Origin: Nostoc sp. HK-01
GTDB taxonomy: Bacteria; Cyanobacteriota; Cyanobacteriia; Cyanobacteriales; Nostocaceae
DNA length: 64,000 nucleotides
Assembly: GCA_003990705.1 (NCBI GenBank)
Contig: AP018318.1
Location: forward strand, 1,054,001 to 1,118,000
Direction: 5' to 3'
Under the pieces are notes generated by a model. It saw nothing but the letters and a program-made list of their open reading frames with translations. It made no database searches and was not told the origin of the DNA. Below, piece by piece: positions 1 to 17,235 of this stretch. A program made the translations under genes and the position numbers. Within the stretch, counting starts at the first letter, position 1; every line of letters begins with the position of its first letter.

Positions 1-2
1 TT

Positions 3-2819: not shown

Positions 2820-3470
2820 ATGTCATCTCTACGCCAGCATTTTCAGCGTATAAAAGAAATAGTTGATTGGAGTTGGACTCTAGCTCTGCTTTGTCTCATC
2901 GGTTATCTAACGCTAGGGCAACTTGCCCAATTGTATTGGGCAATGCTGTTTTTAGGGGGTGTGGCAGGTAGTTTCGGACTTTTTTATGAATTTTCATGTG
3001 AAAAATTGGCAGAGCTAGATTCTCTTGATACTTATGAACTTCAGAAAGCTAATGCATCAGCTGCTGCGGCTCAAGTTATACTTGGAAAATTTGCTAACAG
3101 AAATCCTACAATTACAAACTACTCTTCAGATTTTGTAAGAGCAAAAGAGCAAGTAAATAATACTATACAAACTTCTTATACTAAGTTTCATGAGAAAGCT
3201 TATCAAAAAAGACGGTCTACTGAGCCAAAACCGCCAAAACCAACTCAACAAATACAACCACCGATAAGCCACTCACCTCCACAAAGCTCAACATCATCTA
3301 ATGCAGCATCACCAAGAACGCCACAATTAAGTAGAGCAAGTAAGGCAAAACTTACAGCAAGAGAGTATAAGAGCATTTCTAATCCAAGTGATTATGAATT
3401 TGTTCAAGGATACATGAAAAGAAATGGAACTTGGGTAGATGGATATTATAGGAGAAAAAGACGTAGATGA
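2820..3470 (+). CDS. Hypothetical protein with two membrane segments and a Pro/Ser-rich linker
   Basis: 216 residues. Two adjacent hydrophobic segments (about residues 18-52) form a hairpin in the membrane. Then come an Ala-rich helical stretch, a Pro/Gln/Ser-rich low-complexity linker (about 130-165) and a basic C-terminus (GYMKRNGTWVDGYYRRKRRR). The ending YVQGYMKRNGTWVDGYYR-like pattern resembles short 'GYxRxNGTxVxGYxR' segments seen in many small bacterial proteins, so it may be a separate module. It follows the preceding gene by 16 bp. The role is unknown. Confidence 0.6.
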   Translation: MSSLRQHFQRIKEIVDWSWTLALLCLIGYLTLGQLAQLYWAMLFLGGVAGSFGLFYEFSCEKLAELDSLDTYELQKANASAAAAQVILGKFANRNPTITNYSSDFVRAKEQVNNTIQTSYTKFHEKAYQKRRSTEPKPPKPTQQIQPPISHSPPQSSTSSNAASPRTPQLSRASKAKLTAREYKSISNPSDYEFVQGYMKRNGTWVDGYYRRKRRR

Positions 3471-3538
3471 TAAAAGTTACAATAATAAAAATTAAATAAG
3501 TAAAACTAGTAATCGCACCTTCCCATATTCCACATCAA

Positions 3539-3632
3539 CCTAACCCCCCAGCCCCCTTCTTTTGTAGGGAAAGGGGAGAAATCATACTCCCCTCTCTGAC
3601 GCGGAGAGGGGTTGGGGGAGAGGTCAGCCATA
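3539..3632. repeat. C/G-rich palindromic repeat, left copy beside the DUF559 gene
   Basis: Begins with CCTAACCCCCCAGCCCCCTTC (3539-3559, 21 bases in two blocks CCTAACCCCCCAG and CCCCCTTC) and continues with two hairpin-forming parts (CCCCCTTC...GAAAGGGG and CCCCTCTC...GAGAGGGG). A near-identical start recurs at 4083-4103. This type of repeat is widely dispersed in cyanobacteria. Confidence 0.75.
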
Positions 3633-3667
3633 ATGTATGAATAAACACCAGCAGCTAAGATTCATAC

Positions 3668-4087
3668 ATGAATAATCCAACACCGCCACACAAATCACCA
3701 CGTAAAGAAGAAAAAACTCATAACATAGTCATCGGACAAACAATAAACCTAGATAAAATGCAGCGTACTAAAGAACTTCGTCGCCAAATGACACCAGAAG
3801 AAAAAATTCTTTGGCAACATCTTCGTGGTAATCGTCTTAATGGATTACACTTTCGTCGTCAGCAAATCATTGATGGTTTTATTGCAGATTTTTACTGTCA
3901 CGCAGCTAGATTAGTGATAGAAGTAGATGGCAAAATTCATGAACAACAAGCTGAATATGATGTAGAACGTGACAAAGTTTTGTTAGCAAGAGGATTGCGT
4001 TTATTAAGGATTAGAAATGAGGAAGTGGAACAGCAACTTGATCGGGTTTTAATGCTGATTTCTCAAGCGTGTTTTGAAGAGACCTAA
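3668..4087 (+). CDS. DUF559 domain protein (Vsr/very-short-patch-like endonuclease fold)
   Basis: 139 residues. The DUF559 domain covers about residues 33-135. It has the typical ordering: RTKELRRQMTPEEKILWQHLR, FRRQQIIDGFIADFYC, then LVIEVDGKIH, where D and E fit the PD-(D/E)xK-like active site, then a C-terminal RLLRIRNEEVE. The family is predicted to cut DNA, but activity is not established for most members. Direct repeats frame the gene. Its stop codon (TAA, 4085-4087) lies inside the right repeat, so the repeat supplies the end of the protein. Confidence 0.8.
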   Translation: MNNPTPPHKSPRKEEKTHNIVIGQTINLDKMQRTKELRRQMTPEEKILWQHLRGNRLNGLHFRRQQIIDGFIADFYCHAARLVIEVDGKIHEQQAEYDVERDKVLLARGLRLLRIRNEEVEQQLDRVLMLISQACFEET

Positions 4088-4125
4088 CCCCCTAACCCCC
4101 TTCCCTACGAGGGAAGGGGGGACAA
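4083..4125. repeat. C/G-rich palindromic repeat, right copy beside the DUF559 gene
   Basis: CCTAACCCCCTAA plus CCCCCTTC (4083-4103) repeats the left copy with two mismatches in 21. It is followed by a hairpin, CCCCCTTCCCT / AGGGAAGGGGG. It contains the stop of the DUF559 gene. Confidence 0.75.
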
Positions 4126-4551
4126 TTCTGGTGTTTTTCTGTGTTGAGGATTCAGGCGATCGCACTCAAATATTGATAAAATCTACAAACTTGGCCTTGT
4201 GTGTATCCTTTCACATCCTCCTAGATAGCACAGATTGGTAAGTATATACTTTCCTACAAATATAGAAAAAAGCTATCGAGTGATTGCATAAACCGTATTG
4301 TGCTTGATGGCTGGTAGTTAGGCTGATTTTAATTCTGCATCTGCGATTCCATAAACTTTCCAATTTAATCTGGGAATTTTAAATCGATTTTGATGTATCC
4401 TAGATTTTCTTAGGTAATTTTTTCAACACCCAAGTTCATAAAACTTTTTTGCGGATTTTGCTCAAGGTTCTTGAAGAAGTTCTTGAACTCTCTAAGAATC
4501 TACCTTTTGTTGCTTATTTCTTTGTCACACTTTAAGGCTTAACAAATCATC
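4126..4551. other. Intergenic, AT-rich
   Basis: No credible ORF or RNA gene seen. It holds one HIP1-like site near 4157 and AT-rich upstream sequence for the next small gene. Confidence 0.5.
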
Positions 4552-4812
4552 ATGGATATACGACTCATCAAAAAATCCGAAAAATTAATCCTGAAAAAAA
4601 TAAAACAGATAGAAGAAGAAAATCTTTCAATAGATGATTTTGAGAGCCAAGAAGCTACAGTTGAGGAAAAACAAGCAATCAATTTAGTAGAAAATAGAGA
4701 GGATGACTATATTCCATTGCGAGATAATCCTGTAGTTTTATCTATCGCCAATTCTGGATGGCAGGTTTCGGAAATCTTACGGGATATCAGAGTAGATACT
4801 TTCTACGATTGA
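4552..4812 (+). CDS. Small hypothetical protein
   Basis: 86 residues, strongly charged. It has a Lys/Glu-rich N-terminal half that could be helical (LIKKSEKLILKKIKQIEEEN), an acidic middle and a more hydrophobic C-terminal part (PVVLSIANSGWQVSEILRDIR). The size and charge pattern would suit an antitoxin, but no toxin gene is next to it, so that is only a guess. A terminator-like palindrome begins 31 bp after the stop, which supports a real transcript. Confidence 0.5.
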   Translation: MDIRLIKKSEKLILKKIKQIEEENLSIDDFESQEATVEEKQAINLVENREDDYIPLRDNPVVLSIANSGWQVSEILRDIRVDTFYD

Positions 4813-4843
4813 TCAATAATTTGGTAAAAATCAATAGGGTCAC

Positions 4844-4872
4844 ATACCCGGTTTCTCTCAGAAATCGGGTAT
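4844..4872 (+). terminator. Palindrome, terminator-like, ATACCCG...CGGGTAT type
   Basis: ATACCCGGTTTCT pairs with AGAAATCGGGTAT (13 pairs, one G-U), 3-nt loop. Only a weak T-run follows. Related in sequence to the palindrome at 13479-13509, so it may be a dispersed repeat serving as a terminator. Confidence 0.6.
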
Positions 4873-4965
4873 CTTGTTGAATAAGAATAGGCAAAGATTC
4901 GCTTATTTATGTTGAATGCCTTGTGGTAAGTTTTTTGCTAGTTATCACAATATCTTGATATCGCA

Positions 4966-5769
4966 ATGCTAGAGCTAGTATTAATCAAGCTGGGGGGTTC
5001 CTTAATTACTGATAAGAATCAACCATACACTGCTCGACTAGAAACTATGCAGCACCTAGTTGAGGAAATTAGTCTAGTCCGCCAGCAAAATCCTAGTTTA
5101 AAAATGATTATTGGCAATGGGGCTGGTTCCTTTGGTCATCAGTCAGCGCATAAATACAATACTATCAATGGTGTTGTCTGTGATGCTGAAAAACTAGGAT
5201 TTTGTCTAGTCCACCAAGATGTTTTAGATTTAAATGTATTACTAGCTAAGTATTTTTTACAAGCAGGTTTGCCAGTAGTTAGTTTACCACCTCTAACTAT
5301 GGCAATCACTCACAATAAAAAACTAATTAAAGCTGACTTTTCTGTGATTGAAAACAGTTTACAATCTGGCTTAATGCCTTTAGTTTTTGGTGATGTGGTT
5401 TTCGACAAAGCTATTGGTGGGACTATTCTTTCTACTGATACATTGTTAGCAGAATTAGCTAAATACTTTCATAGTCAAGGTAACTACCAAGTACGACTCA
5501 TCAACGCAGGTAATTATCCTGGTGTGTACGACCAAAATAGGCAAGTAATACCTCATATTACGCCAGCCAATTATTCCCAAATTAAAGCTGTTATTGGTAA
5601 GAGCGCATCGGTAGATGTGACTGGTGGTATGACCCAGAAAGTAGAAGAGTTTTTAGCTATTTCTAGGTTAGGAATTGATTGTTGGATAATTGACGGCAAT
5701 ATTTCGGGAAATTTAGTCAAGGCTGTTTTGGGACAGCCGACTTTAGGGACGGTAATTCGTGCATTTTAA
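4966..5769 (+). CDS. Isopentenyl phosphate kinase-like protein (amino acid kinase family)
   Basis: 267 residues. Expected reaction: ATP-dependent phosphorylation of isopentenyl phosphate, or another isoprenoid monophosphate, to the diphosphate in the cytosol. Seen: the amino-acid-kinase start KLGGSLITDK (residues 8-17); NGAGSFGHQSAHKY with His58, matching the histidine that distinguishes isopentenyl phosphate kinases from other kinases of the fold; then LVFGDVVFD and GGTILSTDTLLAELA for nucleotide binding; and DVTGGMTQK near the end. Length is normal for the family. It converges with the SPFH gene, with 5 bp between the two stops. Glutamate 5-kinase or aspartate kinase is unlikely given His58 and the absence of PUA or ACT domains. 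Confidence 0.8.
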   Translation: MLELVLIKLGGSLITDKNQPYTARLETMQHLVEEISLVRQQNPSLKMIIGNGAGSFGHQSAHKYNTINGVVCDAEKLGFCLVHQDVLDLNVLLAKYFLQAGLPVVSLPPLTMAITHNKKLIKADFSVIENSLQSGLMPLVFGDVVFDKAIGGTILSTDTLLAELAKYFHSQGNYQVRLINAGNYPGVYDQNRQVIPHITPANYSQIKAVIGKSASVDVTGGMTQKVEEFLAISRLGIDCWIIDGNISGNLVKAVLGQPTLGTVIRAF

Positions 5770-5774
5770 TTTTA

Positions 5775-7358
5775 TTACCGATTAATCCGAATTAACTCTG
5801 TCAAAATACTATCCAAGCTACCATTAACTTGAATTTTTTCAATCTTCTCGGCGATTCGTTCTAGTACTTCCAGTTCTTTTAACCGCAATGCGACGGGATT
5901 ATCCTCCATAACTCTGGCAGTATTTAACATACTGCGAGTTGCAGCGGTTTCTTCACGACGACGAACTACGTTGGCTTGGGCTGCTTTTTCCGCTTCTACT
6001 ACTTTGCTCAAAATAGTTTTAATTTCACCGGGAAGGATAATATCTTTTACCCCCACCGAATCAACTTCAATTCCATAGTCGGCGGTTTTTTGGCGAATAT
6101 ATTCAAAAATACTGTTATCGATTGCGCCTTTATCCTCTAGCAACGCATCTAGAGTTCTTTCTCCGACGGCGCCACGCAAAGCAAATTGTAGCTCTTTGTA
6201 TAAGTAGCCAACAATATCCACTAACCCATTTTTGGCTCTCAAAGGGTCAATGATGCGATACCCAGCAGTTAAATTTAAGCGTAACGGTACTTTGTCTTTA
6301 GACAGGATATCTTGACCAGATACTTCTAACGTTTGCTGACGCAGATCAAAAACTTGTGTTTGCAAAGAACGCCCGAATAGCCACCAGACGTGCATTCCTG
6401 GTTGCAGTTGTGTTTGAAATTCTTGATTGATGTAGAGTAGCCCAAGATACTGTGCTGGAACTTCGCAGATATGCAAACAATTGCGGCTTAAAGCGAGAGT
6501 TTCTGGTAAGCCTGAAACTAACTCAGCAATTAAACGTGGTGGTAATGTTGCATCAGTGTTGATGTCAATGACTTCTACTTCCACACCCCGCCAAAATAGT
6601 TTGCGACTACATGGCTTGAGGATAGCAATGACTTTACCTTGATAGCGAGCGATCGCTACTTGCTGATTTTGTAACTGCACTATCTCACAATAAGCCGCGA
6701 CAAACTCAGGATGTCGTTCAATCAACACCTCTTCTAAGGGAAAATCAGGATTTGGGACAATTCGGCTGAGAGTCCGCACTGTCACATCTCTATCAATCGC
6801 CCAAAAAGCATACTCACCAGATTCTAGCGGCTGTACAAAGTTGTTCTGCACATACAGCAAACCAATCTCATACTCGGAAATTTGGAATTTCTTAATTCCA
6901 TTCAAGGCAATTCCCCGTAATTGTTGCACAAACTCAGCAGGTAATGCCAAACTTTCAGTTACGTTAAAAAGATGAGTTTCTACTTCAATAAAACCACGCC
7001 AAAAAGCCCGGAGTTGATTTGGCGGAATGCTAACCCAATTTTGACCCCAACGGACTAAAGCAGCTTGATTGAATCCAGTTCTCACTACTACAAGATATTC
7101 CTGTAATTCTGAACTGTGATTTCGCAACAATAGTTCCAAGTTTTCAATCTTAGCTTCCGGTTGGTTGAGGTCGTAGGTTGTGACTTGCCAATGTTTGCCA
7201 AAATAAGTGTAATTACCAGGCTGTAAAATTTTCTTAAAATCACTGCGGTGATATAAAATACCAATTTCGTTAGGTTTGATATAGAAAGTTTTCCACATAG
7301 TAATTCTCATAGATAAATTAGGCTGTTTTAGCCTAGAAAGAAGATTTGATAAAAACAT
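5775..7358 (-). CDS. SPFH/band-7 (slipin-like) protein with a repeated N-terminal half
   Basis: 527 residues. The C-terminal part (about 345-520) is an SPFH/slipin domain: LSKDKVPLRLNLTAGYRIIDP, LYKELQFALRGAVGERTLDALL, YGIEVDSVGVKDIILPGEI, then a helical VVEAEKAAQANVVRRREETAA. No N-terminal membrane hairpin is seen, unlike classical stomatins. Residues about 30-340 are built from recurring units of the form 'xxIGLLYxxxxFxxxLxPGxYxxW...xxVxxxDL', at about 30, 162 and 302, with weaker copies near 90 and 222. Such proteins act as scaffolds at membranes in general; the substrate here is unknown. The start is uncertain, since Met17 and Met21 are alternatives and none has a good ribosome site. Confidence 0.75.
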   Translation of the reverse strand: MFLSNLLSRLKQPNLSMRITMWKTFYIKPNEIGILYHRSDFKKILQPGNYTYFGKHWQVTTYDLNQPEAKIENLELLLRNHSSELQEYLVVVRTGFNQAALVRWGQNWVSIPPNQLRAFWRGFIEVETHLFNVTESLALPAEFVQQLRGIALNGIKKFQISEYEIGLLYVQNNFVQPLESGEYAFWAIDRDVTVRTLSRIVPNPDFPLEEVLIERHPEFVAAYCEIVQLQNQQVAIARYQGKVIAILKPCSRKLFWRGVEVEVIDINTDATLPPRLIAELVSGLPETLALSRNCLHICEVPAQYLGLLYINQEFQTQLQPGMHVWWLFGRSLQTQVFDLRQQTLEVSGQDILSKDKVPLRLNLTAGYRIIDPLRAKNGLVDIVGYLYKELQFALRGAVGERTLDALLEDKGAIDNSIFEYIRQKTADYGIEVDSVGVKDIILPGEIKTILSKVVEAEKAAQANVVRRREETAATRSMLNTARVMEDNPVALRLKELEVLERIAEKIEKIQVNGSLDSILTELIRINR

Positions 7359-7700
7359 TTATCAGTGTTGCTTGAAGAATTTACCTGGATGTTTTCTGGC
7401 AAGTAGGTAAAACTTGATGTATCACAAATTGCCTGACACACCCTGTAATTGAGCTAATAAGTTTTTAACATCTGTAATACATATAATACATTGCAACTTC
7501 AGACTCTGCAAATGTGGGAATTTATGCACTACTCATCTGTACTACAAAGAGAGTTAGCGATCGCTCTACAGCATTACCAGAAGTCCAGCCAAGAGAGGAA
7601 ACACAAAAATTAAGGTGCGTTAGGCTTTAAGCCGTAACACACCATGAATCTACACCCTCATACCTTAGATCAGGTGTAGCAAACGAAAACTATCTGGAAA
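7359..7700. other. Intergenic with HIP1 site and a hairpin repeat
   Basis: Contains a HIP1 octamer near 7559, an isolated 13-base match (7503-7515, ACTCTGCAAATGT) to the a2 arm of the retron RNAs, and the palindrome at 7614-7643. No coding region seen. Confidence 0.5.
7614..7643. repeat. Palindromic repeat GGTGCGTTAGGCTT/AAGCCGTAACACACC
   Basis: An imperfect inverted repeat, of the kind found dispersed in cyanobacterial intergenic DNA. It lies 58 bp beyond the end of the RidA-like gene and could end its transcript. Confidence 0.6.
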
Positions 7701-8273
7701 TTAATACCAGCCATTATTGGATGATTCTGGAATCACCGCATAAGCATCAATTTCAAACAACATACCGTCCAGAGCCAATCTCGGAACAGGAATCAATGTG
7801 TTTGCGGGTGGTGTGTTACCCCATAAATTACCAATTTCGCGTCCTAATGGAATCAATTTCTCTTGAGTGTGATTGACTATCAGAACAGTTGTTTTGACTA
7901 CATCTTTAGGTCTTGCACCGGCTGCATTTAAGGCAAACCGCAGATTCTGAAAAGCTCGTACTAACTGTGCTTCATAGTCATTGGAAACAAGATTACCTTG
8001 TAAATCTGACCCAAATTGACCAGAAATATATACAGTTCTTGTTCTTGGAGGTGTAATCGCTATATGACTATAGCCATTTTGAGGGGCATTATATAAAGTT
8101 GGCGGATTAAGCAAAGTTACATCTCTATTTGCATTACCCTGAGCAATTACTTCCTTTTGTGTTCCTGCAACTAAAGCGGTACCTAATCCACTACCTCCTA
8201 GCCACAAAAGAGCATTTCGCCGTGAGAATTTTGTCACTATTGAATTGACCGCACTGGTGATCCGTTGATTCAT
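7701..8273 (-). CDS. RidA/YjgF family protein with a twin-arginine signal
   Basis: RidA proteins hydrolyse reactive enamine/imine intermediates, and many relatives have other roles. The domain covers about residues 60-190 (YSHIAITPPRTRTVYISGQFGSD, VRAFQNLRFALNAAGA, VVKTTVLIV, then a C-terminal FEIDAYAVIPE). The N-terminus has SRRNALLWLGGSGLGTALVAG, a twin-arginine export signal with a hydrophobic core, so the protein is probably exported folded; a periplasmic RidA is unusual. The start at 8273 (MNQRITSA) is preferred over the longer frame to 8300 because GGAG stands 5 nt before it. It is on the same strand as the retron but about 340 bp away. Confidence 0.8.
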   Translation of the reverse strand: MNQRITSAVNSIVTKFSRRNALLWLGGSGLGTALVAGTQKEVIAQGNANRDVTLLNPPTLYNAPQNGYSHIAITPPRTRTVYISGQFGSDLQGNLVSNDYEAQLVRAFQNLRFALNAAGARPKDVVKTTVLIVNHTQEKLIPLGREIGNLWGNTPPANTLIPVPRLALDGMLFEIDAYAVIPESSNNGWY

Positions 8274-8606
8274 TGAAGCTCCGTAGATATGATTTCTCAA
8301 TTTTTGACTAGGCTCAAATTCTATTATGTATTTAATAGTCCTTAAAAATCACCACAAATCCCACTAATTGAGTGCAATTACGTAACGAATATACTAACTT
8401 TAAAGTATCTTTAATATTTCAATAATTGGTCTAAAAAATTTATAGTTTTTTGAAAAAAATAGCTAATTTTACAAAATTTTTGCTGTTATCGTTTTTCTTG
8501 GTACACAAATCATTTCAGCATCAAATCGGGTTGCTGTAATTTTATGATGATTAATTTGATCATCAGGTTATATCTACAGCTATTGCGAAAATACAACATA
8601 TCTAAT
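8274..8606. other. AT-rich intergenic between the RidA gene and the downstream retron RNA copy
   Basis: No ORF, tRNA or repeat recognised. It is where a second RT gene would be expected if a complete retron unit had been duplicated, but no RT-like reading frame is visible. Confidence 0.5.
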
Positions 8607-8609
8607 TTT

Positions 8610-8891
8610 AAACTCTGCAAATGTCAATGTTAACAGTTTAGTTGCGGGCAAAAATCTCTCCAAAACTGGATTAAAAGTGCTACTACTTTCTTGAAGCTCC
8701 CCAAGGGTAATCTCAAAAAATACGGCAGCCCTTAGATATGCCGTTCAGTTTGTCAGTTCCAGAAAACTGGATGTGACTAACGAAGGGACATACTCAAAAT
8801 TAAGGAGGAAACAATTGCACTAGCTTCCTTGCTGTTACTAACGAAGATTATGAGTAATCAACGCTAGTAGAACACTAACACCGCAGAGTTT
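8610..8891 (-). ncRNA. Second, diverged copy of the retron msr-msd RNA (no RT directly downstream)
   Basis: About 280 bp similar along its whole length to the RNA at 10282-10556, in the same orientation. The outer arms are AAACTCTGC (8610-8618) and GCAGAGTTT (8883-8891); in RNA the pairing extends with G-U pairs and a bulge. Shared internal blocks include AACGAAGG.ACATACTCAA, ATATGCCGTTC and the msd-side arm CTTTCTTGA/TCAAAAAA. The first hairpin keeps pairing with different bases (TTACT/AGTAA here, GACTAC/GTAGTC in the other copy). The basal msd stem is less regular, so this copy may be decaying or may act in trans with the same RT. Confidence 0.7.
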
Positions 8892-8995
8892 ACTAACCAA
8901 AATAGATTTTTTCTTTCTTGGTTTTTCCCGATTCTGTGAGTGCGAAATAGCCTTGTCCCTAACAAGGTGCCTTTATCCAAGGCGAGGTTTTGTGT

Positions 8996-9067
8996 GAGAA
9001 AGTCCAGGATTTTTACCTGTTATCAATCGGCGATACACCGATCGCTCACTTAATGAGCTAACTTTCT
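8996..9067 (-). pseudogene. Degenerate tRNA-like sequence beside the downstream retron RNA
   Basis: Acceptor arms AGAAAGT/ACTTTCT pair perfectly. A D-arm GCTC/GAGC and an anticodon stem ATCGG/CCGAT can be drawn. The D-loop lacks GG, the anticodon loop lacks U33, and the T-loop reads TAAAAAT instead of TTCxAxT. It is homologous in position and acceptor sequence to the tRNA-Asn at 12007-12078. Confidence 0.6.
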
Positions 9068-9180
9068 CATGACTAGTTACATATCAAGCGGAGGTATACG
9101 TTCAAGCCAATGGTTGGCGTACCAGTTGAGCATCCAGAACCCAAACTTAAGCTTTGCATCATGTATTCCTAATCGATACT
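9068..9180 (-). repeat. Conserved leader upstream of the degenerate tRNA (copy 1)
   Basis: GGTATACG (9093-9100) and GGTTGGCGTACCAGT (9112-9126), followed by GAG.AT...AGAACCC, recur at 12177-12184 and 12196-12210 with the same 19-bp spacing. It lies 5' of the tRNA on the minus strand in both places. The role is unknown; perhaps promoter or leader RNA. Confidence 0.55.
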
Positions 9181-9237
9181 CAATTTAACTCAAGCAGATA
9201 TCCAGAAACAGACGGTAATTACTTAAGGCAACAGTTC

Positions 9238-10278
9238 TCAATTTTTCTTACCATATTTTTTCTGAATACGCTGAATTTGTTGTTGGAACTCAGCACCTTT
9301 TTCGGGGTTTACCATTGCGACAAAATTGGCGAATCCGGTGATTGAGGCGACAAGATTAGATGATTTACCCCAATATTTACCTTCTAACCCTTCATTTTCT
9401 ATTTGATGTAGAGTTGCACGGAAGCTTTTTAATTTTTTCCGAGAAATATTAATTTTTTGATTAACGATAATACCCGTCACTTTTTGCTGTTGAGAGTTTC
9501 GCAGAATGCGGGTTTTGTCTGGGTTGATGGCAAATCCTTCATCAGAGATAATTGATTGAGCTTGTTTAATGAAACTGCTGGTATGTTTAATTTGCTCACC
9601 TGATGCTGAAAATGTTAAATCATCAACATAACGGGTGTAGGTAAAACCAAATTGTGTGGCGATCGCACTTAAGCGCTCATCTAAACTCCGACAAATAATG
9701 TTTGTAATTGCAGGGCTGGCTGGGGAACCTTGGGGAAGATGACGTTGTTTAAGTTCAACAAAGTTTATCTCACCGTCTACGTTGCGTTCTTCAACTACAG
9801 GCGCAGTACACAATAGCCCAAAGATTGTAGCAACGTATGAAGAATAACCGAAAGATTGAAATAATCCTTTAACCCGCGGATATGTAATAGCCGAGAAAAA
9901 ATCTTGTAAATCAATGTTAATAATGACTTCCGCGCCAATATGAGGGGTAGCATTAGTAATGATGGAGCGATCGCCACAAAAACCATGTGCTGCATTATGA
10001 ATGGCAATTTTTTGTAAGATATTATGCAAAATCCAGTATTGAGCGCGTTTTAAGTCGGGCAATGGTGCAGAAATAATTCGCGTTCCTGCAATTTTTTTCG
10101 CAGTTTTGAAATGAATGTAATGTGAAATATGGGAAGTTTGAGAATTAAATGCTAAAAAATGAAGTCGAGCAATACTAATTTCTATAGATGCTGCAATCTG
10201 TTCGGCATTATTATATACATCTAAATTGTATTTTTTTAACTGTTCAATATTGTTTTGATTATGATTTTGAAAATTCAT
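9238..10278 (-). CDS. Retron reverse transcriptase
   Basis: 346 residues from Met at 10278. It synthesises branched msDNA from its cognate ncRNA; retrons act as anti-phage systems in other bacteria. Seen: retron-specific NAxxH (NATPH, residues 109-113) just before the DLQDFF catalytic motif (123-128); LPQGSPASP (181-189); catalytic YVDD (217-220); and the retron VTG triplet (267-269, VTGIIVN) for RNA recognition. The longer frame to 10401 is rejected because its extra 41 codons lie inside the ncRNA's a2 arm. The gene starts 3 bp after the a2 arm, the standard retron order. No effector ORF follows on this strand before 8.3 kb. The protein has no extra domain, so the effector, if any, is elsewhere or lost. 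Confidence 0.93.
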   Translation of the reverse strand: MNFQNHNQNNIEQLKKYNLDVYNNAEQIAASIEISIARLHFLAFNSQTSHISHYIHFKTAKKIAGTRIISAPLPDLKRAQYWILHNILQKIAIHNAAHGFCGDRSIITNATPHIGAEVIINIDLQDFFSAITYPRVKGLFQSFGYSSYVATIFGLLCTAPVVEERNVDGEINFVELKQRHLPQGSPASPAITNIICRSLDERLSAIATQFGFTYTRYVDDLTFSASGEQIKHTSSFIKQAQSIISDEGFAINPDKTRILRNSQQQKVTGIIVNQKINISRKKLKSFRATLHQIENEGLEGKYWGKSSNLVASITGFANFVAMVNPEKGAEFQQQIQRIQKKYGKKN

Positions 10279-10281
10279 TTT

Positions 10282-10556
10282 AAAACTCTGCAAATGTAGG
10301 TGTTTACAGTTCAGTTGCGGGCAAATGTATCTCCAAAACTGGATTAAGATTGTTGCTACTTTCTTGAAACTACCCAAAGATAATCTCAAAAAAGACAGCA
10401 ACGCTCAAATATGCCGTTCGGTTTGCTCATTGCAGAACACTGGAGATAAACGAAGGACATACTCAAGTTGAAAAGAAAACATTTGCACAGGCTCCTTAAC
10501 TGTGACTACCAACACCACCATGTGATATTAGTAGTCAACCTACAATGCAGAGTTTT
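10282..10556 (-). ncRNA. Retron msr-msd RNA, directly upstream of the RT
   Basis: The outer inverted repeats fit a1/a2: 10539-10556 (read on the minus strand AAAACTCTGCATTGTAGG) and 10282-10300 (CCTACATTTGCAGAGTTTT), pairing over about 17 bp with a small bulge. Inside are an msr-type hairpin (10503-10536, GACTAC/GTAGTC with inner pairs) and a long msd-type hairpin with basal stem TATCTCCA/TGGAGATA (10328-10335 with 10441-10448). The msd inner stems are GTTGCT/AGCAAC (10352-10357, 10397-10402) and CTTTCTTGA/TCAAAAAAG (10359-10367, 10386-10394). Size and position match known retron ncRNAs. The priming guanosine was not fixed with certainty; a G occurs just after a1. Confidence 0.85.
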
Positions 10557-10561
10557 ACTAA

Positions 10562-11950
10562 CCCTGTTGTGTCACTTTAGGCAGAGGAAAAATAGAATTC
10601 AGGGTGAGTTAGGAAGATAAAAATTGGAGAAGTAAGCCTATAAACGATGGCTTGAAGCTGAGAAAAACCCTCATACAGTTGAGGAATAGAAAAAACTGTT
10701 AACCAGGGATATATGAGATTAAATAAAACGAAAGGTTGAATAATTAAACGCAGATTGTTGAGAATATTCTTCCAACCTTTACCATGATCCCACCAGGGGT
10801 GAGAAGCGAATGCTGATTGAGGAGATGGAGGAGAAGGACGCAGAGATTCTGAATGAAGACTAACCATAAGGTAGGCACTACAGACAATTTCCCACCAGCG
10901 TTCAATATCTTCATAGCGAGTAAAACGATAATCAGCCCAACCTAATTCATTCTTACTTTGTTTTAAACCATATTCTACCCATGTTCTTAACCCATAAAAA
11001 TTCCCAACCTCTCTAGGTGTGATGTCGGGATATTTGCTCATCACATACCAGGTAGAGTTTCCGGGTAATGCTTCAGTATCTGTGGTAATTTGCCAATATC
11101 TATGTTCGCCACGTTTGCCGTGAATTATTTCTCTAATAAATCGATTTTCACTACTTAAGTCAGAGAATACTCTTTTAAATTTCTGCCACTTTAAATATTG
11201 AGTATACTGACCTTTAAGCAAGTCTACAGAATGGTTTGAGCGTATTGCTACTAAATAATTTAAATCTAGTTCATCTAATACAGATACAAAATTTGTGCCG
11301 CTTTCGCCATATAAGCTATCAGCCAGTACCAAGTTGAATTTAAAACCCATCGACTGTAACTTTCGTATTAGCATTGCCCCGATTTGAGGCTTGGTCAGAT
11401 ATTTATCTCCTGGCTTTAATTTCTCCCGTGGTTTGTACACTTCAAACAGTAGTGGGAATGTCATTCCACAAAATACACCATAGGCTGTAACTGCCACAAC
11501 TCCGTTCTCTACTTTCCCCAAATTACCTATGTACTGACGTTTCACATAATCTGTGGTCGTACCTTTCTTTTTATCTCCGGTTTCATCAATAATTAAAATG
11601 ATTGGTCTACCTTTGAGTATTTGTAGAATTAGCTCTAATCTTAAAGCTCTTAACTGTTCTACTTCCCAATATGGGGTAGTTAAGAAATGGTGTAGCCCTT
11701 GATAGTTCTCTAATCCAACAATTTTTGCTATTTCTGGTAGACTCTTTCGTTTTATATCAGAAATACATCCTATATGCAGATACTTAAACGCTTCAAAATT
11801 TCTGACATCTGAAAACAGCTTTTTATACCAAAGACAATATTCATCCACAAATTTAACAGTTTGTTTAGGTGGACGAGGCTCTACCATGCTCTGTGTCTTC
11901 GTTCTAGGCTTTTTACATTCTTATACTACCGCGATAGTGACACAACAGGG
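10562..11950. mobile_element. Complete IS701-family insertion sequence
   Basis: The 15-bp terminal inverted repeats are perfect: CCCTGTTGTGTCACT (10562-10576) and AGTGACACAACAGGG (11936-11950). The target duplication is CTAA (10558-10561 and 11951-11954), which fits the YTAR target of the IS701 family. One transposase gene fills it. The element sits 5 bp outside the a1 arm of the retron RNA, between it and the tRNA genes. Confidence 0.92.
10577..11887 (-). CDS. IS701 family DDE transposase
   Basis: 436 residues, full length. Catalytic motifs: first Asp in LIIDETGDKKKG (about residue 100), second in LVLADSLYGESG (about 190), and Glu in RTWVEYGLKQSKNELGWADYRFT. It lies 1 bp inside the left terminal repeat and 49 bp inside the right one, on the same strand as the retron RT. 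The reading frame is intact, so the copy may still be mobile. Transcription from its right-end promoter would run through the transposase towards the retron RNA. Confidence 0.93.
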   Translation of the reverse strand: MVEPRPPKQTVKFVDEYCLWYKKLFSDVRNFEAFKYLHIGCISDIKRKSLPEIAKIVGLENYQGLHHFLTTPYWEVEQLRALRLELILQILKGRPIILIIDETGDKKKGTTTDYVKRQYIGNLGKVENGVVAVTAYGVFCGMTFPLLFEVYKPREKLKPGDKYLTKPQIGAMLIRKLQSMGFKFNLVLADSLYGESGTNFVSVLDELDLNYLVAIRSNHSVDLLKGQYTQYLKWQKFKRVFSDLSSENRFIREIIHGKRGEHRYWQITTDTEALPGNSTWYVMSKYPDITPREVGNFYGLRTWVEYGLKQSKNELGWADYRFTRYEDIERWWEIVCSAYLMVSLHSESLRPSPPSPQSAFASHPWWDHGKGWKNILNNLRLIIQPFVLFNLIYPWLTVFSIPQLYEGFSQLQAIVYRLTSPIFIFLTHPEFYFSSA

Positions 11951-12006
11951 CTAAATTTCAATTGGCTACCGTGACAGGGTAGTGTCTTTTAACCCGGACA
12001 GGGTGG

Positions 12007-12078
12007 GAGAAAGTACAGGAATCGAACCTGCAACACATCGATTAACAGTCGATTGCTCTACCAGTGAGCTAACTTTCG
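12007..12078 (-). tRNA. tRNA-Asn (anticodon GTT), accessory-type
   Basis: Cloverleaf drawn by hand: acceptor GAAAGT/ACTTTC with a mismatched first pair, D-arm GCTC/GAGC with a GG loop, anticodon stem ATCGA/TCGAT around CTGTTAA (anticodon plus-strand 12044-12046), T-arm GCAGG/CCTGT with TTCGATT. It lacks an encoded CCA. The weak first pair suggests an accessory rather than the main chromosomal copy. Confidence 0.75.
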
Positions 12079-12080
12079 GG

Positions 12081-12150
12081 TCTTTGATGTAGGAGTCGAA
12101 CCTACGACCAGCCGAGGGCTTCGGATGCTCTACCACTGAGCTAATCAAGC
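12081..12150 (-). tRNA. tRNA-like gene, imperfect, possibly Gly (GCC)
   Basis: Separated by only 2 nt from the tRNA-Asn upstream end, so the two form a tandem array. The D-arm GCTC/GAGC with loop AGTGGTA and the T-arm GTAGG/CCTAC with TTCGACT are canonical. The acceptor pairs over five of seven positions. The anticodon arm is short (CCG/CGG around AAGCCCT) and lacks U33, so the identity is doubtful and it may be a pseudogene. Confidence 0.5.
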
Positions 12151-12260
12151 GACGGAGTAACAACCTATTGCTCTACGGTATACGCACAATCTAGAGGTTG
12201 GCGCACCAGTCGGGTATAGAGAACCCGAACCATAGTTGAGCCGATGTATTATTACCTTGT
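12151..12260 (-). repeat. Conserved leader upstream of the tRNA pair (copy 2)
   Basis: Shares GGTATACG (12177-12184) and GGTTGGCGCACCAGT (12196-12210) at the same spacing with copy 1 at 9068-9180. It probably includes the promoter of the tRNA genes. From here to 12506 no other feature is seen except a HIP1 site near 12312. Confidence 0.5.
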
Positions 12261-12506
12261 AACTTAATGTAGCACAAGGAAATTGAAAGTCAACTTATTG
12301 CTGGCAGTAGTGCGATCGCACCATCATAAGACTTTAGTTAGAAGAAAACAGGATTCTTACTGGATATAAATATTATTTTTGACTGAATCCAGACAGATTT
12401 AACTGATATCTACAGCTAATGATAGAGTTCATTGGAATTTTCAATATTTAGCATCAAAGTAGTTACAAATATTAATCCATCCACTGAAAGCTGTATTTTA
12501 AATATT

Positions 12507-13451
12507 ATGCCTGTTAACTGCTTGACACAGCTAAATAAGAATAATGATTCTGATGCAGATCAGCATACTCAACAATCAATAAAAGTAGAATTTGCTCTAG
12601 TATTAGATCAAATTAAAAATTGTGTTTGGCTAATTGGAATTCCTTCATGGTTATTTGCCGTAACTGATAGAAGCGTTGCTATTTTTTATGATGGAAATTT
12701 ATCACCAATAGACATATTACAGCTATTAATGACTTGCTTATTTTTTGTCAGTTGGCTTTATTTAAAACCAGAAGAAAGTTTAAATAGCAATGATGTAGAA
12801 CCTAATGAATATGAAGAATATTTAAGTCGCAGTCAAGCTCACAAGTTCAGGCTAAAAAAGCGGCACATGATTAGTCAAGATTATATTTTACCTTTTCCTT
12901 ATTATTGTCAAATCTATCACTTGCTAAACTTAAAGCACTTAGAAACAGTGCATAAATTTAGCCTTAATAGTTTAAAAATTTTGAGTATCAGTCAATTCAA
13001 ACCAACTAATATTGGTGGAGTGATCAAATTTACTACTATGTTGCAACCAAATATTAATCTGTTAAGATTTTGGCGGCAACCAATTGTCGAGGTAGATTTA
13101 ATTTTACATACTCCCTATACTATTGAACTGAGTATTCCGGCATATAATGACAAACGAATAGTTGTGATATTTCATGCTTTTCCTTTAAGTGAGAGAGAAC
13201 ATCAATTATTTATAGATATATATAGTGATTTAGAATGGCCTAAGCCAATCTTGCAATTTATTTTGCATTGTGCTGCTTGTTTGACACTGTTTGAAGATTT
13301 GCCATATTTACAAGCTTTAGCAGAAAAAAATGTTGAACGTTTATTTAATGTGAATTTAGCTTCTAAACACGAAACCATGTTACTGTTTAAACGGTTTATA
13401 GAACTATATGGTACTCGACAAAAAAGCATCCAGTTACCAGAATCGACATAG
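12507..13451 (+). CDS. Hypothetical protein with two likely membrane segments
   Basis: 314 residues from ATG at 12507; the frame is open upstream to a TTG at 12432. A hydrophobic pair lies at about residues 40-85 (CVWLIGIPSWLFAV and LLMTCLFFVSWLYL), followed by a soluble region with HLLNLKHLETVHKFSLNSLKILSI, then a beta-rich part and a C-terminal helical part. No known motif is recognised. It faces the ABC exporter operon and ends before a strong palindrome at 13479. It is the nearest complete protein gene to the upstream end of the retron unit, but on the opposite strand, so a link is unproven. Confidence 0.6.
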   Translation: MPVNCLTQLNKNNDSDADQHTQQSIKVEFALVLDQIKNCVWLIGIPSWLFAVTDRSVAIFYDGNLSPIDILQLLMTCLFFVSWLYLKPEESLNSNDVEPNEYEEYLSRSQAHKFRLKKRHMISQDYILPFPYYCQIYHLLNLKHLETVHKFSLNSLKILSISQFKPTNIGGVIKFTTMLQPNINLLRFWRQPIVEVDLILHTPYTIELSIPAYNDKRIVVIFHAFPLSEREHQLFIDIYSDLEWPKPILQFILHCAACLTLFEDLPYLQALAEKNVERLFNVNLASKHETMLLFKRFIELYGTRQKSIQLPEST

Positions 13452-13478
13452 TATTTCTAAATCATACGTGAACAAACA

Positions 13479-13509
13479 GATACCCGACTTCTTAAAGAAG
13501 TCGGGTATC
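13479..13509. terminator. Bidirectional terminator-like palindrome
   Basis: GATACCCGACTTCTT and AAGAAGTCGGGTATC are perfect 15-bp arms around one A. It lies between two convergent genes and shares the TACCCG/CGGGTA core with 4844-4872. Confidence 0.7.
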
Positions 13510-13545
13510 TAAAACTAGCAATTTTGAAAATTCACAACAGCTACT

Positions 13546-15261
13546 TTAAATAGCAGACTCAGTTCCTGTCAACAATGCTTTAGTTGCAGACTCTCCTGCT
13601 TTTTTCAACTTGCGCGTTAGTTGAGATACCAAAAGTCCTGTGAGCGCAAAATGTCCTAAAATTGCCAGGAAATAAGAAAATGTTAATCCGTCGCTTGTTG
13701 GCCGAGATAAAGCAATGACTGGCGCAGCAATGGAAAATAGCCAAACTACAGCATAGTTGTCAGGTTTAGAGAAAAATATTCCTAAGAAAATAGGTGGGAG
13801 TATAATTACAGACATTAACACCCCTGTTGCCCACAATTGACGCTGTTCATTTTTCATGAATAGGATTAATTGGGTTAAAGCTGCATAGATCACAGCTAAA
13901 CTGCCAGCAAAAAGCAGCGCTAGGCAAGCATTAGTTTTATTTTCGATATTTACTTGCGAGATTAAAACAAAGCAACTTAAGGCACTAACAGACATTATCA
14001 CATTAATAGCGATCGCTAAAATTCCCGGACTTTTTTCACCCCAGATTAAATCATTAATTAGACTATTTTTCCCTAAACCTTTGGCATGAGAAACATGTTT
14101 ATATCTTGCCCAATCTTGCAGTGTGAGACGACCAGGACTGATGGCTGCAATTAAATATAAAAACAGCCCTAAATTCAAGACCATTAAAAGGCCAATATTT
14201 TCTTGAAGTGCATAACTTCTAGATGAGCTATTAAATATTAAATCTTGCCAATCAGCACATCCTAAAATGATGACTGTAAAGCAAACTGTGAGCAAATAAC
14301 TCTGCTTTTTGGTCAACATAGTTGCATTAGGATCACGAAAACAACGCTGTAAAGATTGCCAAATGAAGTACGCACCTACAAGATAAACTGCTATAGCAAA
14401 GCAAGCTGTAGTAATGAAACTTTCTCCTATAGGCAGAACAAACCAATGAAAGTCGGTAAATTGGGGAATATTTTTGGTTAATTCAGAATTAATCTCAGGA
14501 TATGGAATTAAGAAACATGGGTTAATTAGCCCAAAAAAGCTTACTGGATTATTAGCAGAAAAATTAGATGCTATGGTTTGCTTGCTAAATATGAGATAAC
14601 CTAATAATGCCCCACTACCTAACCAAGCTTGAAAACTGCCTAACCAAGAACCAACTAAGCCAAATAATAATGCAGCGCTGTAGTAGACAAAACTAGCAGC
14701 TATGACTACTGCATAAAAACTGATAATTTCTATTAAAGGAATTTTCGCATTCAACCCTGACCATAAATGTAAAGGTAAGGCTAACACTACAAAAACATAA
14801 AGTAAGGCTGGAACACCTAAGATTTTCCCCCATAAAATACTTTTTGGTGATTGGGGACTAAGGCGAATAAAATTGAGCGTATCACGTCTTTCTTCTGTAG
14901 CTAAATCATTAATCAGGAGATAGCTCCCTGCTGCTAATAATCCAAAGTTAACAATAATACTCAGCCAACTGAAAATATCAAACGACCATAATTGCCAATT
15001 AATTATAACTTGACCTAACCCATCAGTTAGGCATTCTGCATAGTCGTATTTTGTGATACCTGTACAATATTTATTGGGACTACCTTGTAATACACTCAGG
15101 CGCGTAGGTAACTGGACTTGAAATGACATGAATAATATAAATTGTCCCAGAAAAGATATGGCAGATGCTAATACAATATTGCGTGGTTTCAGTCGCCCTT
15201 TAATTTCCCGAAACAACTGCGGATTCCAATTTCCTAAGCGACCTATCAAATCTTCTATCAT
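13546..15261 (-). CDS. ABC-2 type exporter permease, second paralog
   Basis: 571 residues, about a dozen hydrophobic segments. It begins MIEDLIGRLGNWNPQLFREIKGRLKPRN, nearly the same as the start of the upstream permease (NWNPQLLREIKGRLKP). Both carry the conserved cytoplasmic stretch after the second membrane segment (EERRDTLNFIRLSPQSPKSILWGKILGVP). It is third in an operon running ATPase - permease - permease, and the two permeases probably form a heterodimer on the shared ATPase. The substrate is unknown. A terminator-like hairpin in the 78-bp gap before it could lower its expression. Confidence 0.85.
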   Translation of the reverse strand: MIEDLIGRLGNWNPQLFREIKGRLKPRNIVLASAISFLGQFILFMSFQVQLPTRLSVLQGSPNKYCTGITKYDYAECLTDGLGQVIINWQLWSFDIFSWLSIIVNFGLLAAGSYLLINDLATEERRDTLNFIRLSPQSPKSILWGKILGVPALLYVFVVLALPLHLWSGLNAKIPLIEIISFYAVVIAASFVYYSAALLFGLVGSWLGSFQAWLGSGALLGYLIFSKQTIASNFSANNPVSFFGLINPCFLIPYPEINSELTKNIPQFTDFHWFVLPIGESFITTACFAIAVYLVGAYFIWQSLQRCFRDPNATMLTKKQSYLLTVCFTVIILGCADWQDLIFNSSSRSYALQENIGLLMVLNLGLFLYLIAAISPGRLTLQDWARYKHVSHAKGLGKNSLINDLIWGEKSPGILAIAINVIMSVSALSCFVLISQVNIENKTNACLALLFAGSLAVIYAALTQLILFMKNEQRQLWATGVLMSVIILPPIFLGIFFSKPDNYAVVWLFSIAAPVIALSRPTSDGLTFSYFLAILGHFALTGLLVSQLTRKLKKAGESATKALLTGTESAI

Positions 15262-15301
15262 TACTATATTCTCCCAAACAATACTGAATAAATAGCTAAA
15301 A

Positions 15302-15327
15302 AAGAACTAGTTGAATATCTAGTTCTT
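15302..15327 (-). terminator. Hairpin with T-run between the two exporter permease genes
   Basis: AAGAACTAG/CTAGTTCTT stem, 8-nt loop, followed on the minus strand by TTTT. Possible internal attenuator within the operon. Confidence 0.6.
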
Positions 15328-15339
15328 CTTTTTGATAAA

Positions 15340-17235
15340 TTAGCGTCCTGCTAACAGTGCTTTTGTTGCAGATTCTCCAGCTAACTTCACCTGATTTGTC
15401 AAATGTAAATTTAACAACGCTAAAACAGTAAATTCAGCTAGAAGTGACATAAAAACAGTGACTGTTGCTGAGTGTTCTAGTCCTACCCAAGGAAAATTAG
15501 AAAATAACCAAAAGACAGAATTTGCTTCAGGTGTAATGTTCAACAGCCCAAAAATTATTGGTGGCACAAACATCACTGTACCTGTAGTTGCGATCGCAAA
15601 TAAAGTCCGCCGTGGAGTTTTGAGTAATAACATTCTCTGCGCTATGGTTGCATAAACCATAGCTAGAGTAATAAACATAGCTATTCCTAAGATAGCTTTC
15701 ATTCTGCCAATTTTGTTCACCCAGTCAATGGCATTGTTATCGTGAGTATTCAAAGCTGGTGCAAGTACAATCCACACTAGTAATGGGATAGTAATTATTA
15801 TCAAACTAAACCCAATTGAAACTATTGCAGGACTTTTATCATGCCAAACTAAATCTTGCCATATAGTATTGTGGCTCATTGTTTGTTGATGACGATATCT
15901 TGCCCAATCTTGTATTTGGTGTCTATGAGGAGACAAGATTGCTAACAAACAAGTTAGTAAAACTAAGTTAAATAATACAATCCAGAAGAAATTTTGACCG
16001 ATTTGATAATTCAAATCGTAGTAACAGTTCACTGGTTTATATTCTCGGTAAGAGGGACAGTAATTCTTGGTATATTGCAGAGTAAAACCCCAAAAAATTA
16101 CTTGAGAGCAAGCTACTAGTAAGTAACTTTGTCTTTTACTTAGCAAGGTAGCATTAGGATTGCGAAACCTCCGTCCGAGTGCTTGCCAAATCCAATAGCA
16201 GCTAACACCATAATTAAATAGATGTAATCCTATAAATGTAAAAACATTTTTTCCTAACGGTATATAGAAAAATTGAGTCTCTGATAAAAGTGATGAATTA
16301 CCTCTATTAAATAGATTTGGAAACAGATATTTCGTCATATCAAAAGGACTTAATAATCTCAGCCATGCTGCTGTGTTGTGCAGGTTTTCGGTATTAAATG
16401 CAAATTGCATTGTAGTTAGCAAAAACATGATTACTGCACCACTAGCTAACCAAGGTTGAAAGCTGCTAAATCGATTACTCATCAAGCCAAATAATAATGT
16501 GGCACTATAGAAGAAGAAGCAACTAGCAGCTAACACTATATAAAAGCTGAAAATATAACTTGTGGCAATTTTGGCAGAAATTCCTGACCAGATGTGTAGG
16601 GGAATTGCCACTAAAATCATCAAATAAATGACAATTGGTACTCCTAGTATTTTGCCAGTTAAAATGCTAGTTTCTGACTGGGGACTGAGGCGGAGAAAAT
16701 TCAGCGTACCACGGCGTTCTTCTTGTGCTAAATTATTGACTATTAAATATGTACCTGCAACTAAAAGTGTATAAATAAAGACGACACAGAGTGTGAGAAA
16801 TATGAATTCCCAGTGGTCGCGCCACCACCCTTGAAAGTTAATTTCTGAAATAGGACATGGTTGCTGGTATAAATTATATTCTACTTGTTTTTTTTGTACT
16901 TCTAAAGATTTTAATTGCTCTTTGAACTCCTGAACTTTTGTAAAGTCGTAGTTTTTCTTACTATTATAAAAGTTGATTTGTTTTTGAGCTTGACCTATGA
17001 GTTTATAAAATGATTCAGATTGCTTTTGATAAACCTTACTTAGATTACAATACGATCCATTCATAGGATACTTATTATTAGGATATTGACCAAAATGATA
17101 AATAAGTAGCCCTATTTGACCAATTAGGGAGATAGCGAAGGCAAATATCAAGTTAAAAGGTTTGAGACGACCTTTAATTTCCCTGAGAAGCTGAGGATTC
17201 CAGTTGCCGATTTTATCTAGTAGATTCAGATACAT
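15340..17235 (-). CDS. ABC-2 type exporter permease, first paralog
   Basis: 631 residues from the ATG at 17235 (MYLNLLDKIGNWNPQLLREIKG). This start was chosen because it aligns with the N-terminus of the sister permease; the frame is open further upstream into the ATPase gene. After the first membrane segment there is a soluble insert of about 100 residues with a helical stretch (KVQEFKEQLKSLEVQKKQVEYN) that the sister lacks. Then comes the conserved EERRGTLNFLRLSPQSETSILTGKILGVP. It follows the ATPase gene by 34 bp and is likely co-transcribed with it. Confidence 0.85.
   Translation of the reverse strand: MYLNLLDKIGNWNPQLLREIKGRLKPFNLIFAFAISLIGQIGLLIYHFGQYPNNKYPMNGSYCNLSKVYQKQSESFYKLIGQAQKQINFYNSKKNYDFTKVQEFKEQLKSLEVQKKQVEYNLYQQPCPISEINFQGWWRDHWEFIFLTLCVVFIYTLLVAGTYLIVNNLAQEERRGTLNFLRLSPQSETSILTGKILGVPIVIYLMILVAIPLHIWSGISAKIATSYIFSFYIVLAASCFFFYSATLLFGLMSNRFSSFQPWLASGAVIMFLLTTMQFAFNTENLHNTAAWLRLLSPFDMTKYLFPNLFNRGNSSLLSETQFFYIPLGKNVFTFIGLHLFNYGVSCYWIWQALGRRFRNPNATLLSKRQSYLLVACSQVIFWGFTLQYTKNYCPSYREYKPVNCYYDLNYQIGQNFFWIVLFNLVLLTCLLAILSPHRHQIQDWARYRHQQTMSHNTIWQDLVWHDKSPAIVSIGFSLIIITIPLLVWIVLAPALNTHDNNAIDWVNKIGRMKAILGIAMFITLAMVYATIAQRMLLLKTPRRTLFAIATTGTVMFVPPIIFGLLNITPEANSVFWLFSNFPWVGLEHSATVTVFMSLLAEFTVLALLNLHLTNQVKLAGESATKALLAGR

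What the first reader, a model, noticed from the sequence alone, without database searches (positions are those of the whole stretch)
8607..10561. Retron with two copies of its msr-msd RNA bracketing one reverse transcriptase
The RT (9238-10278) has NATPH, YVDD and VTG. The ~275-nt RNA directly 5' of it (10282-10556) has 17-bp a1/a2 arms and msr- and msd-like hairpins. A second ~280-bp relative in the same orientation lies 340 bp beyond the RT stop (8610-8891). Its a1/a2 arms are kept, and its first hairpin is rebuilt with different bases (TTACT/AGTAA against GACTAC/GTAGTC), which suggests selection on structure. Retrons normally have one ncRNA per RT. A single RT serving two RNAs could make two different msDNAs.
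Basis: partly seen in the sequence, partly recalled or inferred. Interest (0 to 1): 0.88.

Follow-up and report, generated by a model that had tools for sequence, protein, structure and literature searches.

The report
Retron-type enzyme inside tRNA-mimic RNA locus
A retron-type reverse transcriptase sits between two copies of a large structured RNA that carries tRNA look-alikes and that, in most related cyanobacteria, occurs without the enzyme in front of a slipin gene of the RNA-repair kind, so it may link reverse transcription to the response to damaged tRNA.

Summary
Observation confirmed: RT 9238-10278 is a type XIII retron-type RT; RNA A (10279-10557) and RNA B (8606-8895) are real structured relatives with strong covariation. 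The interpretation changes. The 290-nt RNA is the 3' domain of a composite unit (5' structured domain, tRNA-like genes, RNA) upstream of a 527-aa slipin gene across the order, mostly without RT: 102 of 217 family genomes have the RNA, 97 of these a slipin orthologue, 52 no retron-like RT. Slipin homologues lie beside rtcR in Citrobacter and in an rtcR/rtcB RNA-repair operon in Burkholderia; the presumed Anabaena equivalent, alr0739-alr0740, is repressed by the translational-stress regulator TrcR. Here the unit occurs twice with the RT between. Copy A is the resident slipin-locus RNA (its unit split by IS701). Copy B is not a local duplicate of A (AU p 0.0006): it groups with RT-adjacent copies of other families, and no T-loop consensus is left in its tRNA-like (0 of 11 such units, 119 of 122 others). 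So probably one RT-partnered RNA beside a resident one, not two equal msr-msd copies. Whether either RNA is reverse-transcribed is untested.

The parts
5775..7358 (-). slipin (SPFH/Band 7) protein, 527 aa, constant downstream partner of the RNA; model shows tandem beta-repeats, SPFH domain, long C-terminal helix
   Evidence: Pfam Band_7 1e-28; downstream, same strand, within 2.5 kb in 99 of 108 fetched RNA loci; model mean pLDDT 80.9
7701..8300 (-). Rid/L-PSP family protein between RNA B and the slipin gene; among the clustered loci only in this genus
   Evidence: Pfam PF01042 2.4e-23; cluster c22, 6 members
8606..8895 (-). RNA B: 3' structured domain of unit B (RT-linked copy)
8950..8970 (-). 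small conserved hairpin between the tRNA-like and RNA B
   Evidence: gap sequences, position
8995..9068 (-). tRNA-like of unit B; acceptor and anticodon arms kept, T-loop consensus lost
9055..9177 (-). element a: 5' structured domain of unit B
   Evidence: nhmmer 8.5e-34; 127 of 134 RNA hits have one within 900 nt upstream; covariation
9238..10278 (-). type XIII retron-type reverse transcriptase, 346 aa, without the N-terminal coiled domain seen in 12 of 14 unlinked cyanobacterial type XIII RTs examined
10279..10557 (-). RNA A: 3' structured domain of unit A (resident slipin-locus copy)
10562..11950 (-). IS701-family insertion splitting unit A between its tRNA-likes and RNA A; 4-bp duplication CTAA at 10558-10561 and 11951-11954
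   Evidence: NCBIfam IS701 3.4e-74; empty site in L128
12006..12077 (-). tRNA-like of unit A, called tRNA-Asn(gtt)
   Evidence: Rfam tRNA
12079..12150 (-). tRNA-like of unit A, called tRNA-Gly(gcc)
   Evidence: Rfam tRNA
12142..12265 (-). element a: 5' structured domain of unit A
   Evidence: nhmmer 4.4e-22

Best explanation
The locus is an RNA-repair-type slipin operon preceded by a large composite non-coding RNA (5' structured domain a, tRNA mimics, 290-nt 3' domain). The composite unit is present twice and a type XIII retron-type RT lies between the copies. Unit A is the resident copy of the slipin locus. Unit B is the copy that goes with the RT here; its tRNA mimic has lost the T-loop. How it most likely works: translational stress or tRNA damage induces the operon; the tRNA mimics act as baits or processing signals; the RT binds the 290-nt domain of unit B and uses it as its retron-like RNA, making one cDNA species; the slipin, a membrane-type protein with a vault-like domain order, is the protein partner of the RNA. 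Shown: anatomy, conservation, covariation, co-occurrence, separate histories of A and B. Inferred: that each unit is one transcript, induction in this strain, RT use of B, and the slipin's role.
For: RT class; 26 of 26 intact RNA-linked RTs have NAxPH, YxDD and V/ITG; dN/dS 0.15-0.32 in 5 pairs. RNA in 102 of 217 family genomes; RNA against slipin orthologue (E about 1e-190 or better; a few of these are truncated) 97/5/2/113, Fisher 1e-52, not corrected for shared descent, lists copied by hand. 99 of 108 fetched RNA loci have the slipin gene within 2.5 kb downstream. tRNA genes within 450 nt upstream in 117 of 133 RNA copies, 2 of 3962 control points; element a upstream of 127 of 134. Covariation. 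B groups with RT-adjacent copies of families f22 and f33 (11 rows, 96/83, whose bootstrap had not settled; 100/97 in the reduced set); A and B of this clade as one group rejected, p 0.0006. No T-loop consensus upstream of 11 of 11 B-clade copies, present for 119 of 122 others. L219 against its RT-less congener L239: RT and unit B are extra sequence just before the resident unit's element a. Slipin homologues of 41-45% identity: beside rtcR in Citrobacter, with rtcR, rtcB and rlaP in Burkholderia stagnalis, there behind a tRNA-like gene and an element-a-like motif. TrcR represses alr0739-alr0740 in Anabaena (PMC10272220, passages). Slipin model: best Foldseek hit by E-value is major vault protein over the whole length.
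Against: No expression or msDNA data. Three f33 loci carry a canonical type XIII RT (with N-terminal domain, outside the linked clade), yet the RT-adjacent RNA of two of them (L221, L222) falls in the B clade, so B is not tied to one RT lineage. In genus g38 and family f2 the downstream copy groups with its own lineage's RNAs, so there B may be a local duplicate. The AU groups were chosen after seeing the first tree. The long RNA with many fixed sequence motifs is unlike the sequence-variable msd of known retrons (recalled). The element-a match in Burkholderia is weak by HMM (E 2.1 in L259) and rests on position and a motif in 2 of 4 proteobacterial loci, both Burkholderia; the E. coli slipin locus has no annotated rtcR neighbour. 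The vault resemblance has TM 0.31 and rmsd near 15; stomatin-type SPFH domains score higher by VIA Z (17.6 against at most 12.3 for vault) and a sequence profile finds stomatins but no vault protein.
Confidence: 0.5

Rival explanations
1. One reading: a retron with two interchangeable msr-msd genes, one RT making two msDNAs.
For: Both RNAs keep the closing stem and fold; RNA A abuts the RT start, the usual retron order (recalled); twin layout in 18 loci.
Against: A-type copies occur without any RT in many genomes; 9 of 27 RT-linked loci have no intact RNA upstream of the RT in the fetched stretch; A and B are not sister copies.
Confidence: 0.2
2. Hitch-hiker: the RNA is purely an RNA-repair or decoy RNA of the slipin operon; the RT merely settled in a tRNA-flanked, duplicated site and uses some other template.
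For: The RNA persists without RT; none of 24 unlinked cyanobacterial type XIII RT loci examined has such an RNA in the fetched flank (mostly 1.5 kb a side); RT is patchy (16 changes on the slipin tree, at least 10 on starred branches) and decays (remnants L122, L123, L146).
Against: All 16 type XIII RTs with frames of 357-415 aa found by an RT-only search of the family are flanked by the RNA on both sides; an RNA follows the RT in all 27 linked loci, though 11 of these were picked for having the RNA; B-type copies in several families share the RT-adjacent place.
Confidence: 0.25
3. Relic: the locus is decaying and neither RT nor unit A works in this strain (unit A split by IS701).
For: IS701 in unit A; RT and slipin remnants in relatives.
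Against: RT open with all motifs and dN/dS 0.15-0.32; RNA A and B both keep pairing; slipin open and 96% identical to L107's.
Confidence: 0.05

Closest known systems
Type XIII retrons (PADLOC RT_XIII)
   Same: RT family, NAxxH / YxDD / VTG motifs, RNA next to the RT
   Different: RT lacks the ~120-aa N-terminal coiled domain of 12 of 14 unlinked cyanobacterial members examined; the usual type XIII partner genes were not sought by name, and the constant partner here is a slipin; the RNA unit carries tRNA mimics and is doubled
RtcR-regulated RNA-repair operons with slipin, RtcB and RlaP (Proteobacteria)
   Same: Slipin homologue; tRNA-like gene upstream in Burkholderia
   Different: No RtcR or RtcB recognised beside the cyanobacterial slipin; 290-nt extra RNA domain and, in some, an RT
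Bacterial Y RNAs (YrlA), tRNA-mimic RNAs of rsr-yrlBA-rtcBA operons
   Same: Non-coding RNA with a tRNA-like domain in an RNA-repair operon (PMC7790460, passages)
   Different: No Ro60/Rsr search was run; the RNA is a composite with two further domains; no Rfam match at gathering
Eukaryotic vault particle (major vault protein with vault RNA; the RNA part recalled)
   Different: TM 0.31, no sequence match, fewer repeats (recalled for the vault); no cage shown
OLE, GOLLD and ROOL large ornate RNAs (recalled, from no call)
   Same: Large structured RNA beside a membrane protein gene (OLE) or tRNA genes (GOLLD, ROOL)
   Different: No Rfam match

Membership tests
Retron (type XIII) | RT of the retron clade with NAxxH, YxDD, VTG | tested here: met
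Retron (type XIII) | structured ncRNA next to the RT with paired 5' and 3' arms | tested here: met
Retron (type XIII) | ncRNA belongs to the RT (does not occur without it) | tested here: not met
   52 of 102 RNA-bearing genomes have no retron-like RT hit at E 1e-8
Retron (type XIII) | msDNA with 2'-5' branch made from the ncRNA | not testable with these tools
   needs msDNA extraction
Retron (type XIII) | the type's usual accessory genes next to the RT | tested here: inconclusive
   PADLOC scan of the two neighbouring ORFs and the slipin gave no retron partner; neighbours of unlinked RTs were clustered but not named
RNA-repair slipin operon | slipin homologue of that operon | tested here: met
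   41-45% identity to slipins beside rtcR
RNA-repair slipin operon | RtcB ligase or RtcR regulator in the operon | tested here: not met
   none recognised among the window ORFs listed for 1-20000 (read by eye); in Anabaena rtcB is elsewhere but also repressed by TrcR (PMC10272220)
RNA-repair slipin operon | tRNA-like RNA upstream of the slipin | tested here: met
   117 of 133 copies; Burkholderia L259, L260, not called in L257, L258
Bacterial Y RNA | binding by Ro60/Rsr | not tested
   no Ro60 search was run
Vault-like protein | major vault protein fold and cage assembly | tested here: inconclusive
   domain order alike, TM 0.31; assembly not testable here

The most novel reading that the evidence does not exclude
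A new kind of stress ribonucleoprotein: a large tRNA-mimic RNA paired with a vault-like slipin of the RNA-repair kind, which in some cyanobacteria has been doubled, one copy (tRNA mimic without its T-loop) having become the dedicated partner of a reverse transcriptase, so that tRNA damage is read out through RNA-templated DNA. The RNA, shared in outline with Burkholderia RtcR operons, would be a new class of composite ncRNA.
Probability: 0.3. Interest if true: 0.93.

Novelty: new variant of a known kind. Interest (0 to 1): 0.8.

Why it matters
If right, it joins two fields that no paper in the listings of ten literature searches joined (open-licence papers only): retron-type reverse transcription and tRNA-damage repair. 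It gives a natural experiment, the same RNA-slipin locus with and without an RT in close relatives, to ask what reverse transcription adds. It also supplies a conserved, covarying RNA with no Rfam 15 match whose tRNA mimics may be sensors or baits of slipin RNA-repair operons, and a concrete difference of the RT-linked copy (loss of the T-loop) to test.

Tried and rejected
Rfam: no family for the RNA at gathering, and nothing convincing at E up to 10 in 8500-10700. RNA near unlinked type XIII RTs and the other RT loci L069-L106: none with nhmmer --max, E up to 1. Viral contigs: no RT relative. Plasmids: no RNA match. Use in trans by unlinked type XIII RTs: 20 of 30 such genomes carry the RNA against 64 of 169 others, p 0.005, confounded by kinship, not pursued. 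TrcR operator: 36 of 131 units have the published 8-bp site with at most one mismatch against 19% of mononucleotide shuffles; inconclusive. RNAalifold on 56 non-redundant copies of 89 did poorly until four (g38 downstream copies and a partial one) were set aside; those rows are not in A2. Model R1 has only 7 pairs, so it is nearly a sequence model. A slipin dN/dS value used wrong coordinates and is discarded. My note 5 that B-clade units lack a tRNA was wrong: ARAGORN misses it because the T-loop is lost. Solo RNAs as products of A-B recombination: L128 fits, but RT gain fits as well; not decided. Sequence profile of the slipin against PDB: stomatin family, no vault protein. Papers not held; the type XIII retron and cryptic-tRNA papers were therefore not read.

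Full report
What is there. On the minus strand the window reads, 5' to 3': element a (12265-12142), two tRNA-like genes (12150-12079, 12077-12006), an IS701 insertion (11950-10562), RNA A (10557-10279), RT (10278-9238), element a (9177-9055), a degenerate tRNA-like (9068-8995), RNA B (8895-8606), a Rid-family gene (8300-7701) and the slipin gene (7358-5775). The RT is PADLOC type XIII (1e-158), carries NATPH, YVDD and VTG and falls within a cyanobacterial type XIII family.

The RNAs are real. Fifty-two non-redundant copies align (A2). Of 48 consensus pairs, 28 show changes on both sides with pairing kept, against 13.3 in shuffles (0 of 500 as high), and sliding the partners removes most of the signal. 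In the window A forms 47 and B 46 of the 48 pairs, and the 5 pairs that differ on both sides between A and B all stay paired.

The RNA does not belong to the RT. A core model of the RNA (R1) hits 102 of 217 genomes of the family, 58 of 388 sampled from the order and 11 of 291 sampled from the class, the 3 outside the order being weak. In the family 97 of the 102 have a slipin orthologue at E about 1e-190 or better, 4 of the other 5 a slipin fragment; 2 genomes have such a slipin without the RNA, one at a contig edge and one truncated. At least four of the slipins counted (G052, G086, G150, G208) are partial and some frames carry stops. Fifty-two of the 102 have no retron-like RT hit at E 1e-8 and 65 no type XIII RT at E 1e-60 (lists transcribed by hand). 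In 99 of 108 fetched RNA loci the slipin lies downstream on the same strand within 2.5 kb. In G001, G012, G157 and G166 both are in the genome but apart.

The RNA is part of a larger unit. Of 133 copies 117 have one to three tRNA genes within 450 nt upstream on the same strand; 2 of 3962 control points do. The 219 tRNA calls have 44 different anticodon calls (CAT 78, TAT 29; some not assignable), so decoding is unlikely to be what is kept. A further ~120-nt element with its own covarying hairpins precedes 127 of 134 RNA hits.

The two copies in the window have different histories. In the RNA tree copy A of this genus groups with RT-free copies of the same genus; copy B groups with the RT-adjacent copies of G237 (f22), G288 and G361 (f33) and the upstream copy of G270 (f33, no RT in the fetched stretch): 11 rows, 96/83 (bootstrap not settled) and 100/97 in a 50-row tree. 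Holding A and B of this clade together is rejected (p 0.0006), as is holding the two copies of G237 with that of its RT-less congener (p 0.0005); these groups were named after the first tree was seen. The gap between RT and B is conserved across these families. A T-loop consensus is found within 450 nt upstream of 0 of 11 B-clade copies and of 119 of 122 others; the 3 exceptions are L133, L168's downstream copy and the window's own A, displaced by the IS. In G237 the RT and unit B are extra sequence just before the resident unit's element a compared with G263 of the same genus; that resident unit has a further 2.4-kb interruption.

RT distribution. Within the family an RT-only search finds 16 type XIII RTs with frames of 357-415 aa, all between two RNAs, and 30 further genomes with other type XIII RTs; none of 24 unlinked loci examined has the RNA in the fetched flank. 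In other families of the order, where loci were chosen for having the RNA, 11 of 31 fetched regions hold an RT: two RNA-RT-RNA, three RT-RNA-RNA and six RT-RNA (one of these with an RNA remnant, one with a split RT). The linked short RTs form one group of 23 (94/83, not starred); the three f33 RTs have the coiled domain and lie among the unlinked ones, so RT and RNA probably met at least twice. On the slipin tree RT presence needs 16 changes, at least 10 on starred branches. RT remnants in L122, L123 and L146 show losses.

What the locus probably does. Homologues of the slipin at 41-45% identity lie beside rtcR in Citrobacter and between rtcR and rtcB plus rlaP in Burkholderia stagnalis. In both Burkholderia loci fetched a tRNA-like gene stands upstream of the slipin, preceded by a motif like the core of element a; the HMM match is weak, and the two Enterobacteriaceae loci gave neither the motif nor a tRNA call. 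In Anabaena sp. PCC 7120 alr0739 (YdeI-like) and alr0740 (slipin) rise 72- and 42-fold without the repressor TrcR, as does rtcB (77-fold); TrcR also represses a 26-gene tRNA operon (PMC10272220, passages; PMC9938897, passage). In three loci a KptA/Tpt1 family gene lies between RNA and slipin (one scanned). This points to an RNA-repair or tRNA-damage response.

Verdict. The feature is real and more interesting than stated, but it is better described as a retron-type RT lodged between two composite tRNA-mimic RNA units of a slipin operon, one resident and one RT-linked, than as a retron with two copies of its msr-msd. Whether the RT copies B, A, both or neither is the open question.

Noticed in passing
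G000:C1:4301799-4302950 (L125): A second type XIII-like RT (435-aa frame, 57% identity over part) in the window's own genome; none of this RNA found in the fetched 17 kb.
   Followed up: partly
window 49920-49995, 54468-54543, 54633-54709: Three Cyano-1 RNA family matches on the plus strand.
   Followed up: no
L013-L033, L035: Twelve of 14 unlinked cyanobacterial type XIII RTs examined, and both Chryseobacterium ones, carry a ~120-aa charged coiled N-terminal domain that the window RT lacks; their neighbours differ between loci.
   Followed up: partly
L168, L169, L170: Two RNA units in tandem before the slipin with no RT between them, so doubling of the unit does not need the RT.
   Followed up: partly
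L141, L152, L164: KptA/Tpt1 RNA 2'-phosphotransferase family gene directly after the RNA, before YdeI and slipin (L141 scanned).
   Followed up: partly
L260 6327-7003, L259 6400-7003: Burkholderia interval upstream of the slipin holds a tRNA-like gene and a motif like the core of element a.
   Followed up: partly
window 5775-7358: Slipin model resembles major vault protein in domain order.
   Followed up: partly
G118, G187, G038, G144, G029, G113, G153, G074, G142, G094: The slipin gene is reduced to fragments in these ten family genomes, suggesting it is dispensable or contested.
   Followed up: no
G610:C141, G621:C49, G761:C439: Weak hits of the RNA core model outside the order (E 4e-4 to 7e-4).
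   Followed up: no
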